A stretch of 64,000 nucleotides of DNA, taken from contig CALVYG010000005.1 of assembly GCA_944372095.1 (NCBI GenBank), forward strand, positions 1 through 64,000, read 5' to 3'. Below, in pieces: positions 659 through 11,645 of the stretch; position 1 is the stretch's first letter; each line of letters opens with the position of its first letter. The translations under genes and the position numbers were made by a program. Source of the DNA: an uncultured Clostridia bacterium (GTDB lineage Bacteria; Bacillota; Clostridia; Christensenellales; DTU072). The notes beneath the pieces are model-generated. The model did no database searches, was not told the origin of the DNA, and was given only the letters and a program-made list of their open reading frames with translations.

Positions 659-3600
659 ATGAAAAAAGTGCTCAGAATAATTTTATTTCTAATCGCTTTG
701 ACAATGTGTATATTGTTTTTCTCGGCATGTATAAGAGGAAACGGCACGACAGATGGAAACAATTCTTCGGGCGGCGTGAAGCTTACCGAAGATATGGTTA
801 CGCTTAAACGGGATTCGGCGGAATATACCGGCGAACCGATAATATTTGATATATATTCTTTCGAAATAAAAGTTGACGGAATTTCTGCGGATTTAAGAGA
901 TTTCAGCTTTATATACAGCGACAACGTCAATACCGGAACAGCTACGGTTACCGTCACGGCATTAACGAGTAATTTGGTATACGGAAGCGTTGACAAGCAT
1001 TTTACCATTCTTCCCGGAACTAAAACCGTATATTCTGTTGCGGAAGCCGAAGATGCGCTGAACAATGCGAATTACTCGTCCGTAACGCTTTCCGCAAAAA
1101 CAACCGTTGCCGACGGCGAAACGCTAATCATTCCCGAGGGAAAGACGTTACAGGCAAACGTCGGAATAGACAATTACGGCGAAATAAAAGTGTTCGGCGA
1201 TTTCAGATTATATACAAACGTAAAAATATATAACTACGGAAAATTAACCGTAGACGGCAAACTTGCATTGAGCGGCGGTGCGGCGCTGTACAACCTGAGC
1301 GCAGGCAGTTTGCGAGGAGAAACGGTAAATAACGGCACATTATATTTTAACGGCGAAGTGCCCGAAGGAATAGAAGGCGACGGGGGCATTGTTGTGCGCA
1401 GACCGTTTGAAGAAGCGGAGGTAATTCTCGAAAAAGAACAAGTCAGATATGTGAAAGGGCAAACAGGATTTGTTCCCGGGAAGATTAGCGTAAAACTGCC
1501 GGGAGGAACTGTTGTCAACGGAAGTAAATATTCGCCCCGGTATTACGATAACGATTATATAGGATGCGCGAAATTGACGCTTACCGCTCCGATAGACGAC
1601 GCATATTTTTACGGTGAAAAAGAGGCAAAATATGAAATAATTCCCGCAGCTGTAACCGTTACGAGCGAGGATGAACTCAATGCCGCATTCCTTGATTCGG
1701 AAATAAATTACGTTACTTATAAAAAAACCGTAAATAAGGATACGGGATTTTTTACCGTTCCTCAGAATTATACGCTCGATATGGGCAGCGGCGATACGGT
1801 ATATTTATCAGTAGGAGACCTGACGGTAGAGGGCGTTCTGATTGCGGCAAATCTGAATGTCGGTATTCTCACCGTTGAAAAAGGAGGCTATGTTACCGCT
1901 TCACGCGATATGACGGTCAGAGATGAGCTCCGTAACAGCGGAAGTATTCTCTATAAAGGGGGAGAATACGATAAAATGGCATTCGGCGGCACCGTATTGA
2001 ACGACGGTTCAATAGTAAATAAAGGAAGTGCCTTTTACGAGTCGGAAATTCCGTTCGACGTAACAGGTTTCGATAATACAGACGGTAAACTTTATTCGTA
2101 TTGTCCGCTCGACGGCTTGGTTAACGTTACGGTAAAGCACGATATTGCGAATCCCGAAGTTATGTGGCTGTCATACCTGACAAAGCCGTATAATGCGGAG
2201 GAGCAGACGCCGGTAATAAAGAAAAACCCCGCTCTCGGGGTATTGTACGCCAATCAATACAGAGTAACTTATCTGCGCAACGGAGAACGAACCGACGACA
2301 AGAGCGGCGTCGGCATTATTACGATGAAAATAGAAATAATTTCCCGTACCGAAAACGCTTACCGCGGTACGGCTTTACTGAGTTATGAAATAACCCGTAG
2401 CGCGGTAACGGTAAACAGCGCACAGGCGCTTATTGCCGCAGCGGAGGATTCCGATTATTATCTTGTCGAGCTGGAGAGCGACATAGATGCAAGTTCGGTA
2501 AACGTGGCTGAGGGTGTTGAACTCGATTTGAACGGACATGCTCTTGACGTATACGGGATAGAAAATCACGGCAAAATTATCATACCCGATAACGACTTTG
2601 CCGAAGGTTATGTGCCGACGGACGCGGATTGCAATCTGATTTTTACAAGAATCGAGAATTACGGTTCTATCGAAAATAACGGGTTGATGGCTTCTTTGCC
2701 CGGGATAAATAACGGCTGTTTCATCAATCACGACGGTTCGGAATTTATCAACAACGGTTCTGTTACGGTAGATTACGAAATGCTTGAAGGAGAAAGGCCT
2801 ACTTCGGGAACGGGTGCTATGACCGGCAGAAGGTATTACGACGATTTAATTTTTACGCTTACGGAAACAGAATTTTATTACGACACTACCGAGAAAAAAC
2901 CCGATGTTACGGTTACGCTGAAAGAAAACAATCAGTCCTTGGATAATTCGATATTCAAGCGGGTATATGATTCCAATATAAATGCCGGGACAGGGAAACT
3001 GTATCTTTATATCGAGAATGCCGATATATATTCGGAGTATTACATTACGCGGAGTGAGGTATATTCCGATAATCTTTCACTTAAATTTACCATTTACCGA
3101 AGCGAGAAGGAAGTCGGCACGCCCGAAACGCTTCTTAATGCCGTCCAAGACGCAAATTACGAGCGAATTACGCTTACAAACGATATAGAACTCGGCACAA
3201 ACGGATTTGCGCTGAGCGAAAACGTAATTCTCGATTGCGGGAGCCATCTTCTTATTATGGATACGTCCGTTGCTCCCTACGTTCCGGAAACTTCGTCGAT
3301 AACGGCAGAAGTAAGCGATATAACGTCATTCGAGCAGATGAAATACGTTGCAACCGATATAAAACTTGTCTGCGACATAGGGAACAACAGTGAAGTCGTA
3401 TATATAAAAGCGGTATCGGATTATTCGGTAGACCTGGAGGTTAATCTCAACGGATACGATTTTCGCGCCGAAATTGCCGTAGGCGAAATTATAAGCGTTG
3501 AAAACTTATCGTTACGGGTTCGTTTTTATGACGGAAGCGGAACAAATACGGGAAAAATTTCGGGTGTAAATACGGCAGACGGAACCGCGTCTTATGCGGT

Positions 3601-4168
3601 TAAGACTTTACCCGCCGGAAAGAACTCCGCAACTTATCTCGAATTGGAAAATATTACGGTTTACGGTATATACCTTGAAAGTGCCGACGATTCGTCAAAA
3701 TCAGTAACGGTAACCGTAACGGAATGCACGGTTTTAGGTAAAAACGACGCATCGTACGCCGTCAGGACCGTCGGAAACTCGTTCGGTTTGTCTGCCGAGT
3801 TTATTTCTTCCACGATAGAAGGGTATTCTGCGGTTTATTTGGGATACAGAGAGAAATCCGTAAAATTTACCGATTGTACGATACGCGGAACAGGCGAATA
3901 TAAAGCTCCGTCGTATGCCAATGCGGGGAAAGGATTTGCGATAGGAGTATATTTTTACGGAACGAATAAGCAGGTATTCGAAAGGTGTAACATAACTTCC
4001 GTAAACGGCTATGCCGTGGTACAAGTAAGCGGCAGCGACGGGCCGCGTGCCTGCAAACTTTATTTTAACGGATGTACGTTGTCGGGCAAGGCAGGAAATT
4101 GTTACGCTTACGACGACGAAGCTATTTATATAGACGATATACCTGTTCCGTCGAGCAGGTATGAGTAA
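659..4168 (+). CDS. Large surface lipoprotein with alternating Ig-like and beta-helix-like modules
   Basis: This 1169-residue protein starts with a lipoprotein signal (basic N-terminus, hydrophobic core, Cys24 after F-S-A), so it should be lipid-anchored outside the membrane. The rest looks modular. Ig-like blocks of the MBG type (YTGEP near residue 55; others near 250, 505 and 740) alternate with blocks opening 'V.s.eeL..A...' (about residues 120, 340, 590 and 820). The latter carry short strands and Asn/Gly turns ('NYG', 'NNG') like a right-handed beta-helix. The last 150 residues (GCTLSG, CNITS, CTIRG) also look like a beta-helix. No catalytic motif is recognised. Adhesion or glycan binding is a guess from architecture. 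Preceded by GAGGACGG as a possible ribosome site. Confidence 0.75.
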   Translation: MKKVLRIILFLIALTMCILFFSACIRGNGTTDGNNSSGGVKLTEDMVTLKRDSAEYTGEPIIFDIYSFEIKVDGISADLRDFSFIYSDNVNTGTATVTVTALTSNLVYGSVDKHFTILPGTKTVYSVAEAEDALNNANYSSVTLSAKTTVADGETLIIPEGKTLQANVGIDNYGEIKVFGDFRLYTNVKIYNYGKLTVDGKLALSGGAALYNLSAGSLRGETVNNGTLYFNGEVPEGIEGDGGIVVRRPFEEAEVILEKEQVRYVKGQTGFVPGKISVKLPGGTVVNGSKYSPRYYDNDYIGCAKLTLTAPIDDAYFYGEKEAKYEIIPAAVTVTSEDELNAAFLDSEINYVTYKKTVNKDTGFFTVPQNYTLDMGSGDTVYLSVGDLTVEGVLIAANLNVGILTVEKGGYVTASRDMTVRDELRNSGSILYKGGEYDKMAFGGTVLNDGSIVNKGSAFYESEIPFDVTGFDNTDGKLYSYCPLDGLVNVTVKHDIANPEVMWLSYLTKPYNAEEQTPVIKKNPALGVLYANQYRVTYLRNGERTDDKSGVGIITMKIEIISRTENAYRGTALLSYEITRSAVTVNSAQALIAAAEDSDYYLVELESDIDASSVNVAEGVELDLNGHALDVYGIENHGKIIIPDNDFAEGYVPTDADCNLIFTRIENYGSIENNGLMASLPGINNGCFINHDGSEFINNGSVTVDYEMLEGERPTSGTGAMTGRRYYDDLIFTLTETEFYYDTTEKKPDVTVTLKENNQSLDNSIFKRVYDSNINAGTGKLYLYIENADIYSEYYITRSEVYSDNLSLKFTIYRSEKEVGTPETLLNAVQDANYERITLTNDIELGTNGFALSENVILDCGSHLLIMDTSVAPYVPETSSITAEVSDITSFEQMKYVATDIKLVCDIGNNSEVVYIKAVSDYSVDLEVNLNGYDFRAEIAVGEIISVENLSLRVRFYDGSGTNTGKISGVNTADGTASYAVKTLPAGKNSATYLELENITVYGIYLESADDSSKSVTVTVTECTVLGKNDASYAVRTVGNSFGLSAEFISSTIEGYSAVYLGYREKSVKFTDCTIRGTGEYKAPSYANAGKGFAIGVYFYGTNKQVFERCNITSVNGYAVVQVSGSDGPRACKLYFNGCTLSGKAGNCYAYDDEAIYIDDIPVPSSRYE

Positions 4169-5974: not shown

Positions 5975-6069
5975 ATTGTATACTTGCGAGTATGTATGCG
6001 TGCGGACGCGCGCACGCGTAAAAGAAACAAGTGTCAAGAAACAGTAAATTACTAAACAGGCGGTAAAAG

Positions 6070-9000
6070 ATGAAAAAGAAATTTCTGTCAATTTTCACAC
6101 TCCTGATAGCAATCGTGCTCGGAGTAGCGCTCGTGGCATGCGAGGATTACGGGAAAGAGAACGAGGGAGAAGAAACAACGACAAAGCGTACGTTTACGCA
6201 TACGATAAAGAACGGAACGTTCTATGACGCGTCGACGACTTCGACGTCCACAAGCGGAGATATGTCGGTTCTGGATAAAGTAACCGACTGGACGCAGATG
6301 AGCGGAAGTACGACAACTTCGAAAACGGGAGCGGACGGAGTGCTCAGCGCGGTAATCGATATTTCCGATTCTGATAAATATCAGGCGCTTGCGGATAAAT
6401 ATCTTCACGTATACGAAGACGTTAACGGAGAAGAATTGGACAATAACTTTACGATGCCCAATCCCGGAATAGACCCCAAGACGCCGATGGTAAACCAGCT
6501 TGACGAAAACGGGAAAATAAAAACCGACGAGAACGGAAATCCTTTGAAACAAAGAGAAGACAGCAACGTATTCGTAATAGCGTCGACGAAGAAAGAAGGT
6601 TCGTTATACGCAACGAGTTCGTCGTATACGCTTGAACAAAACAGCATATATCTATTGCAATTTTCCGTATGTACCAAAATAGACGCAGAGGAGGGTGACA
6701 CGACGAAAGGTGCGTGGTTCGTACTCGGCGGAGATATGGGATATACGATAAAATGTATAAACACAAACGGTGAATGGAAAACGTATTATCTGTTTATCGA
6801 AACGAACAGATACAGTTCGATGAGTATAAAAGCGGAATTATGGCTTGGATACGGTCCCGGAATATCGACGTCAACCACGAGTCCCGACGACAAAGGAATA
6901 TATTCGACGCGCGGAATAGCGTTTTTCGACAATATAATATGTGAGAAAGTAGACGGAGAAAAATTAACCGAAGCAATAAGCGACGAAGGTCTTGCGACTT
7001 ACGGAACATACGTTTACGACGCCGAAGACGAAATGAACGATAACTATGCGGAATTCAAGTCGGCATTGACGTCAACGACCGACGGAAGAGGAAACAATTA
7101 TGTGACTGCAAGAAGCGCATATTATCTTACGAACGCGGAAATGGATTTAAGGAAAAAACCGACTTCGTACAATACGACAAGTTACCGCAAATATTTTTAC
7201 ACTTTCCGTGAAAATTACGGCACGAGCAATCTGACGAAATATTCCATAACGTCGAACGCAACGTACGACGCGAAATATTACGGTTCGGTAGACGTATCGA
7301 AATTATACGATATAGTAACCGACGAAAGCGTGGATTTATCGGAAGTAAGCGATAATTATTCCAAATCGACGTCGGAAGGCGGAATAGGTTCGTCTGCGAA
7401 TTTTTACGCAATGGGATACGAAGAGTGGCGTGACAGCGTAATGAACGACCCTGACCATAATCTCAATTCGCTTGACGAAACATACGTAATGATGATTTAT
7501 AACAGGGATTTGCTTGCGAATACGATAAAAACCAGTGAAACCCTGAAAATCGAACCGAATGTATATTACAAGATAAGCGTATGGGTATACGTATGGGCAA
7601 AATCATACGAATTCGGAGGTAAATTACATTACTATCCCGAGTTTTCCGACGCGGAACCCGTAAATCCTTTGGAAAGCGGATTTACCGCGACGGAGAAACA
7701 GACGTATAATCTTCTTTCGACGGAAGGGATAACCGGATTCAGCGGATATACGAATGCGCTTACGGAAGAGGAGACCGCAAAAGCAAAAGATTACGAAAAC
7801 GCATTGACCGCGATAGGAAGCTATGGCTATAACGGAACGGCGTCAGAGACATTAAGAACAGCGGCGGCGGCATGGATACGCGATGATTTGCTGGGACTTG
7901 GAGACACTGTGGACGTATCCGGCACGACGGAATCGTTCTATTATGCATATCTTTGGAATAATCTGACGAGTTTATCGGACGATTTACAGGCTTTGGAGGC
8001 AAGTATAGAAAAACTTTATCTGCACGAAAGAGAAGCCAATACACAGACCTTTAACGATTTGAAAGAAGAAATAGAAGAATATGAAGCCGACCACGAAGAG
8101 TGGGAAATAGACAAAGCGGATTACGAAGCGAAGTATAAAAACTGGGAAGCGAAAAACAGTTATCCGAAAGCAACCGTAAAACTGACGGGAGCGGGAGACG
8201 GAATAAAAGAGCAGACAAAGGCACTCGGAGAATGGCAAGAGATAACGTTCTATATTCAGGGGAACCAACTTTCGCAAAGGCAGTTGACGGTAGAAATGTC
8301 GCTTGGAACGGGAAGCGACGACACGACGTTTATGATAGGCGGAGCGTTCTTTGACAATATAAGCGTAAAAGCGTACAAATCGCTTAAAGAAGCGACAGAG
8401 GACGGCGTGCCGACCGACGCAGAGTGGAAACGTCTGGCTGAGATTTCAGAAGTGGAAAACGTAGAGTTCGGAGGACTTTACGGAGACGCGGAACTCGATG
8501 AAACGAAGGCGTCTGAAATAATAAGCAAAAACTGGTCGGCAGCAGCAGGAGAAGGAACTGCCGCCGGGGATAAGGATGCAATAAGCGTAAAAGTAACGGA
8601 AGGCGATATCGGAAAAATAAAAGTAGGAGAGGCAACAAAATATCTTTATACTCTCGAATATGAAAACAAGAAAGCTACGGCAAGCAAATTAAGTTATACG
8701 GGAGAACACGCGATAAAAATACTTCCCAACAAATTTTACAGATTTGCATTTCTGATTAAAACCGAAGGGATAGACGAAGATTTGGGAATAACCGTAAATC
8801 TTGTTTACGGAGAAGACCCGAATAAACTTGAAAACGTAAAAGATTCCACGGTAAAGACATATACGAACAATACCGACGAGTGGGCGGAAATAGTATATTA
8901 TATCTGCGGAGACCTGGTCGATACCTATTACGTCGGAATAACGATAGATATGGGAAGCGGAACGAGATTCGTTACGGACAGTTACGTATCCGGAAAAGTA

Positions 9001-11589
9001 ATGGTGTCCGCATTCAACGCGCTTGAAATCGATTATGACGAGTACAATTCCGCCGCGACGGGCGACAAGGTAGTAAAAGGCGTATCCTTATATAATATAA
9101 GCACGAGCCTTGACAGCGCATCGATAACGTTTACCAACAGTTATTATTCGAAACTCGATTATTCTTCAACCGATAAGGAAGCGTTTGACAAAGAAGGAAA
9201 ATTGACCGGAATAGGAAAAACCAGCAGCTGGACGGTATCGTCGGTAATAGATAACGATTATGACGCGCCGACGGGTCTTGCATTGAACACGAGCGGTAGC
9301 GAACCTACGCTTACCTGGAAAGGCGCAGACGGAGTGACGACTGATTCCGACGGAGAAGTAATGACAGCTAAGCCTACGCATTACGAAATATGGATGAAGT
9401 ATACCGACGAAGACGGCGACCAGGCAGAGAAATTATACGATAAGGTAGAGGTATCCGAAAACGATGATAACGACGACTATACTTATACGTTTACGGGAGA
9501 TTGGAGCAATACGAAATTAACATATTTCGCCGTAAAAACAATAGGGAGCGACGGAGTATCGTCATTGACGGCATATACGGTAAACGCAATGGGTTCGGCG
9601 AAAGAAGGAAAAAAGATACCCGAACCGAAGACAAAAGAAGACCCGACCGAATCGAAAGCGGGTACGGTATCGTCGTCGTCGGAAGGAATGTTTAAAGTCG
9701 AAAGCGCGGACGGAATAAACTATGTATCGCCCTACAAGACGCTGATGAAACTGACGAGTAATTACGACAGTGTAACAAGCATATATTCACAGACGTTAAG
9801 TTCGGGATTGTCCGCAGACGGATATTATAAAATAAGCGTATGGGTAAAAACGGAGGATGGAGCCTCTGCAAGCATAACGCTCGGAGGAACGAGCGGAGCT
9901 TTGCAGGCGGCTACCGATGACAGTCAGCTCGGATTTGTGCAGATAACAACCGAAGGAGAGTGGGAAGAGTACTGTATGTACATTAAAACGGGCAATTTCA
10001 ATGCAAAGATGTATGTTAAATACAGTCTCGGAAATCCTTATGCGCAGAAACACAGCGGTAAAATAGGTTCCGGCGACAGTGTAAATTATTATCAGACAAA
10101 AGATTTCAGTAAAGGAACGGCGTATTTTGACGCGGTTAAAGTAACGGCAATAACCGAAGACGAATATGCTGCGGCAAAAGAACTTGACGAAGCGTACAGC
10201 GGAACGGGATACGCGTCTACAACCCACGAAACGGTTTACACTGCCATACCTTATTATATATATTGTATGGAATACGTAATGGATTCGTTTGACGCGAATA
10301 CCGAACCGACAAGCACGACTACTGACAACGATACAACGGGAAATACGCCTTCGAACTATAACAGGGATTACGATACCGACCTTACCAAGGACGGAACGCT
10401 CGCTTCGTACGGTGTTTATAATTATGAAAGTTCGAAAACAAGCGAGAGAATGAAACTTGCAATCGAACAGTTATATAAATATACCGACACCGACGAAGAA
10501 GAAGACGTGTTTGTATACAACGAAATATTCTCATCGTTATTTGCCGACAAATTCAATTGTGCTAACTATGGCAAAGACGATTGGAACGACTTTATGGCGG
10601 AATTCCTGAGCGTGAACAGGAAGGACGCCGGCGGAAACGTGACATATGAAGGCGGAAACAACGTGCTTGTAATGAGCAACAAGGCGGAAAGCGGATATGC
10701 CCAGAATTACACGCTTGACAGCAGTTACAATTATAAGGCAAAAGCGGGAACATATACAAAGATAACGTTCAGCGCGAGAACGCTTATAGCGCGCGTGGTT
10801 GAGAAAGAAATTACCGACAGTAACGGCAACAAAGTAACCGATTACGAATATTATCTGGACAAGGCGTACGGAGAGTTCAGAGTGACGCCGTCCACGTCGA
10901 AAAACGACACCGTAAGCGTAAAGATAAATTCATATCTGTACGGAGCAGAGAACGGAAACGTATATCAGGACGTAACGTATACGGTATATCTGTACAATCC
11001 TACCGACAGCGACAATACCGTAAATTGGGCGTTTTATCTCGGCGACGAAAAGGTTGACGAAGACGACGAAAAAGAAAATTCGGAATTTGCGCAATATCTT
11101 GTAGGAATGATGGCAATAGACCTTGTCTCAGCGGAAAACGTGACGGCGGAAGAATATAACGCGGCAAAGAACGCGTCGGGCGGAGAAAAATCGACGAGTT
11201 ATTTCTATGAATATAAAGCGACGGAAGAAGAACCCGAAGAAGAGCCTGACGACGGCGACGAAAATCCGGAAGAAGAGCCGTCGTTCTGGGATAATCTGTT
11301 CAATAACGAATATTTCTGGCTGTATATATCGAGTTTTGTAATTGCGGTAGTAATCATAATAACTGTAATAGCGGTTGTAATCAGCAGATGGAAGAAGAAA
11401 CACCCGAAAGAAGTAGTGGTAGAGAACGTAGCCAAAACCGAGAAAGACATAAAAGTCGTGCCGACGGCGCCGCAGGTGAAAGAAGACGCGTTGGAAGCAG
11501 ACGAATATGTGGACGAAATTAAGCCGACCTACGTTCAGAGAGTTAATAAGAACAAATCGAGAAAGGACAGAAAAAAGGGTAAGAAATAA
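6070..11589 (+). CDS. Giant lipoprotein with carbohydrate-binding-like and Fn3-like modules and a C-terminal membrane span
   Basis: This 1839-residue protein has a classic lipobox (L-V-A-C24) and also a strong membrane segment near residues 1747-1772, followed by RWKKKHPK and a Lys-rich tail of about 65 residues. Both ends would therefore be tied to the membrane. The exterior contains repeated jelly-roll-like units recognised by recurring YYKISVWV, 'EW.E...YI' and FFDNI/YFDAV phrases, which resemble CBM4/9-type carbohydrate-binding folds. A fibronectin-III-like unit lies near 1065-1170 and a Glu/Trp-rich coiled coil near 660-700. The Asp/Glu-rich segment EEEPEEEPDDGDENPEEEP leads into the span. 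No enzyme motif is visible. A glycan-binding or wall-sensing role is inference. Confidence 0.75.
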   Translation: MKKKFLSIFTLLIAIVLGVALVACEDYGKENEGEETTTKRTFTHTIKNGTFYDASTTSTSTSGDMSVLDKVTDWTQMSGSTTTSKTGADGVLSAVIDISDSDKYQALADKYLHVYEDVNGEELDNNFTMPNPGIDPKTPMVNQLDENGKIKTDENGNPLKQREDSNVFVIASTKKEGSLYATSSSYTLEQNSIYLLQFSVCTKIDAEEGDTTKGAWFVLGGDMGYTIKCINTNGEWKTYYLFIETNRYSSMSIKAELWLGYGPGISTSTTSPDDKGIYSTRGIAFFDNIICEKVDGEKLTEAISDEGLATYGTYVYDAEDEMNDNYAEFKSALTSTTDGRGNNYVTARSAYYLTNAEMDLRKKPTSYNTTSYRKYFYTFRENYGTSNLTKYSITSNATYDAKYYGSVDVSKLYDIVTDESVDLSEVSDNYSKSTSEGGIGSSANFYAMGYEEWRDSVMNDPDHNLNSLDETYVMMIYNRDLLANTIKTSETLKIEPNVYYKISVWVYVWAKSYEFGGKLHYYPEFSDAEPVNPLESGFTATEKQTYNLLSTEGITGFSGYTNALTEEETAKAKDYENALTAIGSYGYNGTASETLRTAAAAWIRDDLLGLGDTVDVSGTTESFYYAYLWNNLTSLSDDLQALEASIEKLYLHEREANTQTFNDLKEEIEEYEADHEEWEIDKADYEAKYKNWEAKNSYPKATVKLTGAGDGIKEQTKALGEWQEITFYIQGNQLSQRQLTVEMSLGTGSDDTTFMIGGAFFDNISVKAYKSLKEATEDGVPTDAEWKRLAEISEVENVEFGGLYGDAELDETKASEIISKNWSAAAGEGTAAGDKDAISVKVTEGDIGKIKVGEATKYLYTLEYENKKATASKLSYTGEHAIKILPNKFYRFAFLIKTEGIDEDLGITVNLVYGEDPNKLENVKDSTVKTYTNNTDEWAEIVYYICGDLVDTYYVGITIDMGSGTRFVTDSYVSGKVMVSAFNALEIDYDEYNSAATGDKVVKGVSLYNISTSLDSASITFTNSYYSKLDYSSTDKEAFDKEGKLTGIGKTSSWTVSSVIDNDYDAPTGLALNTSGSEPTLTWKGADGVTTDSDGEVMTAKPTHYEIWMKYTDEDGDQAEKLYDKVEVSENDDNDDYTYTFTGDWSNTKLTYFAVKTIGSDGVSSLTAYTVNAMGSAKEGKKIPEPKTKEDPTESKAGTVSSSSEGMFKVESADGINYVSPYKTLMKLTSNYDSVTSIYSQTLSSGLSADGYYKISVWVKTEDGASASITLGGTSGALQAATDDSQLGFVQITTEGEWEEYCMYIKTGNFNAKMYVKYSLGNPYAQKHSGKIGSGDSVNYYQTKDFSKGTAYFDAVKVTAITEDEYAAAKELDEAYSGTGYASTTHETVYTAIPYYIYCMEYVMDSFDANTEPTSTTTDNDTTGNTPSNYNRDYDTDLTKDGTLASYGVYNYESSKTSERMKLAIEQLYKYTDTDEEEDVFVYNEIFSSLFADKFNCANYGKDDWNDFMAEFLSVNRKDAGGNVTYEGGNNVLVMSNKAESGYAQNYTLDSSYNYKAKAGTYTKITFSARTLIARVVEKEITDSNGNKVTDYEYYLDKAYGEFRVTPSTSKNDTVSVKINSYLYGAENGNVYQDVTYTVYLYNPTDSDNTVNWAFYLGDEKVDEDDEKENSEFAQYLVGMMAIDLVSAENVTAEEYNAAKNASGGEKSTSYFYEYKATEEEPEEEPDDGDENPEEEPSFWDNLFNNEYFWLYISSFVIAVVIIITVIAVVISRWKKKHPKEVVVENVAKTEKDIKVVPTAPQVKEDALEADEYVDEIKPTYVQRVNKNKSRKDRKKGKK

Positions 11590-11610: not shown

Positions 11611-11645
11611 TAAACGCCGCTTTTTGAAAAAGAGCGGCGTTTTGA
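11611..11645 (+). terminator. Rho-independent terminator after the giant lipoprotein gene
   Basis: AACGCCGC (11613-11620) pairs with GCGGCGTT (11634-11641) with an inner T/A stem, followed by a short T run. It separates the surface protein from the P-type ATPase. Confidence 0.8.

What the first reader, a model, noticed from the sequence alone, without database searches (positions are those of the whole stretch)
6070..11589. Giant surface protein anchored at both ends
It has a textbook lipobox at Cys24 and, 1720 residues later, a strong membrane span with a basic cytoplasmic tail. Proteins tied by lipid at the N-terminus and by a span at the C-terminus are rare. A loop of about 1700 residues of glycan-binding-like modules could arch out through the wall. 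The acidic segment before the span is striking.
Basis: partly seen in the sequence, partly recalled or inferred. Interest (0 to 1): 0.55.

Follow-up and report, generated by a model that had tools for sequence, protein, structure and literature searches.

The report
Giant glycan-binding arch, anchored at both ends
A group of gut-type Clostridia carries a giant surface protein of sugar-binding-type modules that appears to be fastened to the cell membrane at both ends, by a lipid at one end and by a membrane helix with a conserved inner tail at the other, and it is probably a regular part of their cell envelope rather than a chance oddity.

Summary
ORF 6070-11589 (+), 1839 aa, has a lipobox (LVAC24), five CBM4-like beta-sandwich modules (one with an inserted FN3 domain), an acidic stretch, one strong span (1753-1771) and a 68-residue tail. 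It reaches no Pfam or NCBIfam cut-off. Its family is lineage-restricted: 73 of 121 genomes of the order match, 38 of them strongly; in a class-wide sample, 7 genomes outside the order match, over about one module each. Of 64 family ORFs (filter requires the late span), all have more positive charge inside and 53 have a lipobox; one is masked, and ten, in a sister group, have an SPI-like start instead. Lgt and LspA are present and Omp85 and sortase absent in 8 of 8 genomes tested. So both anchors should lie in one membrane, and the C-terminus is not a sortase signal. New here: a D-x-[FYW]-x-[DEK] motif conserved in the cytoplasmic tail. Best reading: an envelope arch that holds the cell's own surface glycan and docks a cytoplasmic partner. 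The architecture is well supported; the function is inferred. The layout has precedents (u-spanins, YidC, CtaC), so this is a new variant.

The parts
6058..6063 (+). ribosome-binding-site-like AGGCGG upstream of the ATG
   Evidence: read directly
6070..11589 (+). gene for the 1839-aa double-anchored protein (P0001)
6070..6138 (+). lipoprotein signal peptide, residues 1-23
   Evidence: A23 and C24 invariant in the 29-row alignment A1
6139..6141 (+). lipobox Cys24, predicted lipidation site
   Evidence: Lgt and LspA in the genome
6193..6963 (+). module 1, residues about 42-298, CBM-type beta-sandwich
   Evidence: AlphaFold model; VIA-align Z 13.0, 2.6 A over 148 residues to 4d0q and Z 12.5, 2.8 A over 154 to CBM4-2 2y64
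6997..8385 (+). module 2, residues about 310-772, homologous to the others by profile over its last part, with a helical insert
7687..8154 (+). mainly helical insert inside module 2, residues about 540-695, with a helix of about 59 residues; absent from homologues of about 1350 aa
8437..9030 (+). module 3, residues about 790-987
   Evidence: (Z 12.3 to 5w6h; Z 10.5 to Bacteroides SGBP-B 7kwc)
9115..10158 (+). module 4, residues about 1016-1363
   Evidence: Z 12.7, 3.4 A over 158 residues to 4d0q
9253..9597 (+). FN3 domain inserted in module 4, residues about 1062-1176
   Evidence: 7y6e FNIII, Z 10.3 over 98 residues; absent in homologues of about 1350 aa
10252..11142 (+). module 5, residues about 1395-1691
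   Evidence: profile match to module 1, 99.3%
11224..11280 (+). acidic linker, residues 1719-1737
11326..11382 (+). transmembrane span, residues 1753-1771
   Evidence: helix in model B
11383..11586 (+). basic cytoplasmic tail, 68 residues, low-confidence (probably disordered) in the model
11500..11514 (+). tail motif DEYVD (residues 1811-1815), conserved D-x-[FYW]-x-[DEK]
   Evidence: D1815 at 90% or more in A1
11612..11642 (+). intrinsic terminator-like hairpin after the gene
   Evidence: -18.9 kcal/mol, z -5.6; not in the list of the consensus scan

Best explanation
A lineage-specific envelope protein, single copy in the window's genome. It is exported, lipidated at Cys24, and held again at its C-terminus by one span, so a loop of about 1730 residues with five CBM4-type modules stands outside with both feet in the same membrane. 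The modules most likely bind the cell's own surface glycan (wall or capsule polymer), holding it to the membrane. The tail, through a short acid-aromatic motif, most likely docks a cytoplasmic partner so that the site is positioned or sensed from inside. Shown by sequence or prediction: family, modules, lipobox, span, orientation bias, tail motif, lineage restriction. Inferred: lipidation in the cell, glycan binding, self-glycan as ligand, docking.
For: Matched in 33 of 34 genomes of the window's family, its own included (G031 by a fragment, G025 none), and complete ORFs align end to end (A1). 73 of 121 order genomes match, 38 of them with E of 1e-100 or better by my count. One copy in its own genome. 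CBM-type fold for modules 1, 3 and 4 and profile homology of all five (ten pairs, 97.2-99.6%; four reversed controls at most 3.3%). Lgt and LspA 8 of 8 and Omp85 0 of 8, so probably one membrane; penicillin-binding transpeptidase 8 of 8, so a wall. Net charge inside exceeds outside in 64 of 64. Tail motif, strict form: 45 of 64 tails against a shuffled mean of 5.9 (maximum 12 in 300 shuffles) and 29 of 869 other ORF ends; at the very C-terminus 22 of 46 thinned tails against a shuffled mean of 0.3 (maximum 3 in 500). Recurring neighbours are mostly housekeeping genes (Rnf, UvrA by eye, TauE-like), plus a Polysacc_synt flippase in 37 of 64 loci.
Against: No ligand, partner, expression or localisation data. 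The flippase link is positional: it is on the same strand in 22 of 37 loci, with gaps of 178-1077 bases there except one overlap of 41 bases (L130), on the opposite strand in the rest, and not beside the gene in this window. A GH2 beta-galactosidase-like gene lies nearby in 8 of 36 loci, which favours glycan use. Ten of 64 family ORFs lack the Cys, so the lipid end is not essential to the family as a whole. The fold is not proof of sugar binding: Stig cyclases (enzymes) tie with the CBMs at Z about 12. At E 0.01, Pfam CBM_4_9 matched 1 of 27 members and CBM_4_9_1 3 of 27, in neither case the window's. The tail motif was noticed in these same tails, and related tails are not independent.
Confidence: 0.45

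Rival explanations
1. Nutrient glycan capture: a surface glycan-binding protein that collects dietary or host polysaccharide for uptake, like Bacteroides SGBPs.
For: Fold match of module 3 to SGBP-B; CBM-type fold; a GH2 beta-galactosidase-like gene near it in 8 of 36 loci.
Against: Kept across many families of the order. Among the 30 neighbour clusters that recur in four or more of 64 loci, none looked by eye like a sugar transporter or polysaccharide lyase (only some were run through Pfam). A cytoplasmic tail motif is not expected of a passive binder.
Confidence: 0.25
2. Adhesin to host mucus or neighbouring cells.
For: Large modular surface protein; several members come from animal guts by record title (rumen, colon).
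Against: Conserved transmembrane and cytoplasmic parts; an arch with both feet in one membrane presents no free distal tip. Many record titles name no host, so habitat could not be judged.
Confidence: 0.12
3. Only one end is a true anchor in the mature protein: the ectodomain is later cut near the acidic linker, or the lipid end is accessory.
For: A sister group keeps the span without the Cys; the acidic linker is modelled with low confidence, so probably flexible.
Against: Cys is present in every window-family member whose N-terminus is readable; no sortase in 22 of 22 giant-bearing genomes. Cleavage motifs other than sortase-type ones were not looked for.
Confidence: 0.13

Closest known systems
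Phage unimolecular spanins (T1 gp11 type)
   Same: N-terminal lipoprotein signal and C-terminal transmembrane domain in one chain; gp11 ectodomain predicted beta-rich (PMC6139136, passages read)
   Different: Spanins join outer and inner membranes of diderm hosts for lysis and are phage proteins; here Omp85 is absent and P0001 had no match in the phage records searched
YidC/SpoIIIJ, CtaC and QoxA of Bacillota
   Same: Lipid-anchored N-terminus plus later spans (PMC13068155, passages read)
   Different: Five-span insertases and two-span oxidase subunits; no glycan-binding modules are described in the passages read
DUF4349 protein (candidate 9 in PMC10924467, passages read)
   Same: Predicted lipobox and a C-terminal tail helix
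   Different: Studied as a Tat-pathway candidate; a different annotated domain
CBM families 4, 16, 61 and the hyaluronan-binding module 4d0q (CBM70 by recall)
   Same: Beta-sandwich fold of modules 1 and 4 (Z about 11-13)
   Different: About 11-18% identity; ligand here unknown
Sortase-anchored LPXTG surface proteins
   Same: Large modular ectodomain, C-terminal hydrophobic stretch, basic residues after it
   Different: No LPXTG-like motif in the window protein's last 160 residues, tail of 68 residues, no sortase in the genome

Membership tests
Bacterial lipoprotein (signal peptidase II) | lipobox Cys after a basic n-region and hydrophobic h-region | tested here: met
Bacterial lipoprotein (signal peptidase II) | Lgt and LspA encoded in the genome | tested here: met
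   8 of 8 genomes including the window's
Bacterial lipoprotein (signal peptidase II) | lipid actually attached | not testable with these tools
   needs mass spectrometry or metabolic labelling
Single-span C-tail-anchored membrane protein | one strong late span with more positive charge inside | tested here: met
   charge bias in 64 of 64 family ORFs; hydropathy only, no topology predictor was available
CBM4-like carbohydrate-binding module | beta-sandwich fold | tested here: met
   for modules 1, 3 and 4
CBM4-like carbohydrate-binding module | sequence match to Pfam CBM_4_9 | tested here: not met
   no match for the window protein; 1 of 27 members at E 1.4e-4, and CBM_4_9_1 in 3 of 27 (best 0.0012)
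CBM4-like carbohydrate-binding module | binds a carbohydrate | not testable with these tools
   needs binding assay
Sortase-anchored surface protein | LPXTG-type motif, short tail, sortase in genome | tested here: not met
   motif-like string in 1 of 64, L057, not the window's; sortase in 0 of 22 giant-bearing genomes
Unimolecular spanin | diderm host, lipid end in the outer membrane | tested here: not met
   Omp85 in 0 of 8 genomes
Surface glycan-binding protein of a polysaccharide utilisation locus | encoded with transporter and glycan-degrading genes | tested here: inconclusive
   no such cluster recognised by eye; GH2-like gene near 8 of 36 loci

The most novel reading that the evidence does not exclude
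A clade-defining transmembrane glycan sensor-tether: a double-anchored arch that grips the cell's own envelope glycan outside and reports to, or recruits, a cytoplasmic factor through a C-terminal D-x-[FYW]-x-[DEK] motif, in a branch of Clostridia that has no sortase and may hold its surface together this way instead.
Probability: 0.2. Interest if true: 0.75.

Novelty: new variant of a known kind. Interest (0 to 1): 0.52.

Why it matters
If right, a broad group of Clostridia known here only from metagenome assemblies, and without detectable sortase, carries a regular envelope protein that is in no family library searched. Its two-footed layout is known in small phage lysis proteins and a few membrane enzymes, but I found no report of it as a giant glycan-binding arch in a single-membrane bacterium. 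The conserved inner motif gives a handle: whatever binds it would link surface glycan to the inside of the cell.

Tried and rejected
Sequence search of solved structures with A3 found nothing at E 0.1. Rfam and ARAGORN found nothing in the window. An operon with the flippase was considered and dropped: where the strands agree the gaps are over 150 bases except in L130, strands differ in 15 of 37, and the window lacks it beside the gene. The 520-aa Polysacc_synt protein at 21456-23018 matches the neighbour flippases at about 21-29% identity in the 30 best hits shown (one, L132, at 36%), so I take it for a different paralogue. Sortase absence looked like independent support: 0 of 14 giant-bearing against 13 of 16 giant-less genomes. 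The RpoB tree shows essentially one deep split (giant 2 changes, sortase 3), so it is not independent evidence. A first RpoB tree and a first family tree used wrong ORFs for three rows and one row and were redone. Papers: the searches listed no description of this family; searches returned nothing at all. The held part of PMC8035907 was searched for two names without a hit. Searches (PMC8092201; PMC4282423) gave nothing used. The lists of Foldseek and VIA matches show a fold only; families not listed there are not excluded.

Full report
What is there. The ORF at 6070-11589 on the plus strand encodes 1839 residues, with an AGGCGG ribosome-binding-like site and a terminator-like hairpin at 11612-11642 (z -5.6), so its transcript probably ends there. 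G+C is 39-46% in the 1-kb windows across it, much as in the flanks, so composition gives no sign of recent import. Pfam and NCBIfam give no match above any cut-off, nor any at E 0.01 for this protein.

The two ends. Residues 1-24 (KKK, hydrophobic core, LVAC24) form a lipoprotein signal. The span at 1753-1771 has a mean hydropathy of 3.2. It is preceded by an acidic stretch (40% D/E against 16% in the ectodomain) and followed by SRWKKKHPK and a 68-residue tail. The genome encodes Lgt and LspA, as do all 8 giant-bearing genomes tested. None of the 8 has an Omp85 match, so they look monoderm; all 8 have penicillin-binding transpeptidases, so a wall is probably made. Both anchors should therefore sit in the same membrane. 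No sortase (PF04203) was found in 22 of 22 giant-bearing genomes (0 of 8, 0 of 14), which removes the reading that the C-terminus is a sortase signal.

The family. One copy lies in the window's genome. Among 58 genomes, its own included, 38 matched: all ten of the genus, 23 of the other 24 of the family (one of these, G031, only by a fragment; G025 none), and 5 of 24 from other families. A profile search of 121 order genomes gave 73 matches at E 1e-10. By my count of its list, 38 of these have E of 1e-100 or better; the other 35 are weaker and partial, a few over a single module, so 73 may overcount the family. Of the 20 order members I opened, 12 of which come from weaker matches, all 20 have a late span. 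In a class-wide sample 14 of 196 matched, 7 of them outside the order, each over about one module. Named relatives are uncultured Clostridia and Christensenella-type assemblies such as Candidatus Stercoripulliclostridium merdipullorum, so I place it in Christensenellales-type Clostridia by record titles only.

Counts of the ends. Of 37 loci, 34 show the span and the other 3 are cut by a contig end or gap; 33 show a lipobox Cys (L102 by eye, as my pattern missed it; one search confirms it), two have no readable N-terminus (L068, L099), and two lack the Cys (L101, L103). Many of these are the same assemblies as, so the two calls are not independent. A filter over all stretches (longer than 800 aa, late span, three or more module motifs) kept 64 family ORFs. 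All 64 have more positive charge inside than outside, 53 have a lipobox, one (L037) has a masked N-terminus, and ten have an ordinary-looking signal sequence. The filter demands the span, so '64 of 64' for the span is by construction; the charge bias is not. It also dropped or missed family ORFs seen: L102, L134 and L136 (lipobox) and L140, L142 and L144 (no Cys; L144 has an N-terminal hydrophobic stretch without a clear cleavage site). On a tree of 43 rows the change between lipobox (31) and no Cys (12) happens once, with the no-Cys rows on one side of a branch (SH-aLRT 95; quick method, some long branches). The direction is not known.

The modules. Two AlphaFold models from alignments of 25 rows (mean pLDDT 78.8 and 75.2) show beta-sandwich modules. 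Module 1 matches a hyaluronan-binding module (4d0q, Z 13.0, 2.6 A, 148 residues) and CBM4-2 (2y64, Z 12.5, 2.8 A, 154). Module 4 matches 4d0q (Z 12.7, 3.4 A, 158 residues) with an FN3 domain (7y6e, Z 10.3, 98 residues) inside one of its loops; module 3 matches a phage tailspike (5w6h, Z 12.3) and Bacteroides SGBP-B (7kwc, Z 10.5). Stig cyclases, which are enzymes, tie with the CBMs at Z about 12 in both lists, and parts of Cry and Vip3 toxins follow at Z 10-11, so the fold alone shows neither sugar binding nor any other function. Modules 2 and 5 were not singled out by the fold search but are homologous to the others by profile: all ten pairs have probability 97.2-99.6%, over 52-218 columns (module 2 over about 52-71), and four reversed controls at most 3.3%. 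Homologues of about 1350 aa keep the modules but lack the FN3 and helical inserts.

The tail. Across most of the family the tail is basic, and it ends in or contains an acid-aromatic motif (DEYVD here; DEFKD, RDQFGK, DEYND elsewhere). The strict form D-x-[FYW]-x-[DEK] occurs in 45 of 64 tails (shuffled mean 5.9, maximum 12 in 300 shuffles), against 29 of 869 other ORFs in their last 41 residues. At the very C-terminus it is in 22 of 46 tails after thinning (shuffled mean 0.3, maximum 3 in 500) and in 7 of 869 other ORFs, two of which (ends as in L102 and L140) are family members that my filter missed. A looser form is in 57 of 64 tails, with a shuffled mean of 17.6. The motif was found by looking at these tails, so the numbers describe it rather than test a prior guess, and related tails are not independent. 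Both lipobox and no-Cys groups have it, though some members (for example L103, L126, L128, L143) do not.

Surroundings. In the window the neighbours are a GT4 glycosyltransferase upstream and a P-type ATPase downstream. Across 64 loci a Polysacc_synt flippase recurs in 37, a TauE-like permease in 27, Rnf genes in up to 17 and UvrA (by eye) in 10. The flippase is on the same strand in 22 of 37; there the gaps are 178-1077 bases, except in L130, where the two overlap by 41. So this is neighbourhood rather than a shown operon. A GH2 beta-galactosidase-like cluster lies close in 8 of 36 loci (one member checked in Pfam), which fits the nutrient rival.

Sortase. Giant-bearing genomes had no sortase in 22 of 22, and giant-less genomes of the order had one in 13 of 16. 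On the RpoB tree of 30 genomes, 15 of the 16 giant-less genomes form one 100/100 branch and the 16th (G041) sits among the giant-bearing ones. The link is thus in effect one event and cannot show cause.

How it most likely works. It is exported, lipidated, and stitched in by its C-terminal helix, giving a two-footed loop that presents five glycan-binding-type modules close to the membrane and into the wall. Retention across the lineage and mostly housekeeping neighbours favour a role with the cell's own glycan. The tail motif suggests a cytoplasmic partner. I give about 0.9 to the two-anchor architecture in the window's family, about 0.45 to the whole explanation, and 0.25, 0.12 and 0.13 to the rivals.

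What is known. The same ends in one chain are known in phage unimolecular spanins, which bridge two membranes (PMC6139136, passages); lipid anchor plus spans in YidC, CtaC and QoxA (PMC13068155, passages); and predicted lipobox plus C-tail in a DUF4349 protein (PMC10924467, passages). LocateP treats lipid-anchored and C-anchored proteins as separate classes (PMC2375117, passages). I found no description of this family in the searches, in an open-access library only. I rate it a new variant of a known kind.

Noticed in passing
window 659-4168 (+): A second large lipoprotein-like ORF (1169 aa) with a putative pectate-lyase-like adhesive beta-helix (PF20585, E 6.4e-9).
   Followed up: partly
L146:7195-9309 (-) and L147:5351-7474 (+): Proteins of about 705 aa with a lipobox, one module-like stretch (profile match) and a polytopic-looking region in place of the single span; no Pfam match for L146 at E 0.001 or better was listed. 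A possible second kind of lipid-plus-span glycan binder.
   Followed up: partly
L145 (same-genus genome G004, contig 16): A still larger lipobox ORF (3435 residues within the fetched stretch, open frame 4366 aa) with a module-5-like match of 39% identity.
   Followed up: partly
L138 and L139 tails: Long cytoplasmic tails with several DEFDD-like motifs, as if the docking motif had multiplied.
   Followed up: no
L141 and L143 tails: Long, charged, coiled-coil-like cytoplasmic tails that lack the terminal motif, with a YDR motif just inside the membrane.
   Followed up: no
L057:1130-3460 (-): A lipobox-like ORF with eleven later hydrophobic stretches, possibly a YidC-like or transporter protein; not identified.
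   Followed up: no
L137:1663-4014 (+): A 783-aa ORF upstream of a family member, with a signal-like start and a C-terminal span plus basic tail: another single-span surface protein in this group.
   Followed up: no
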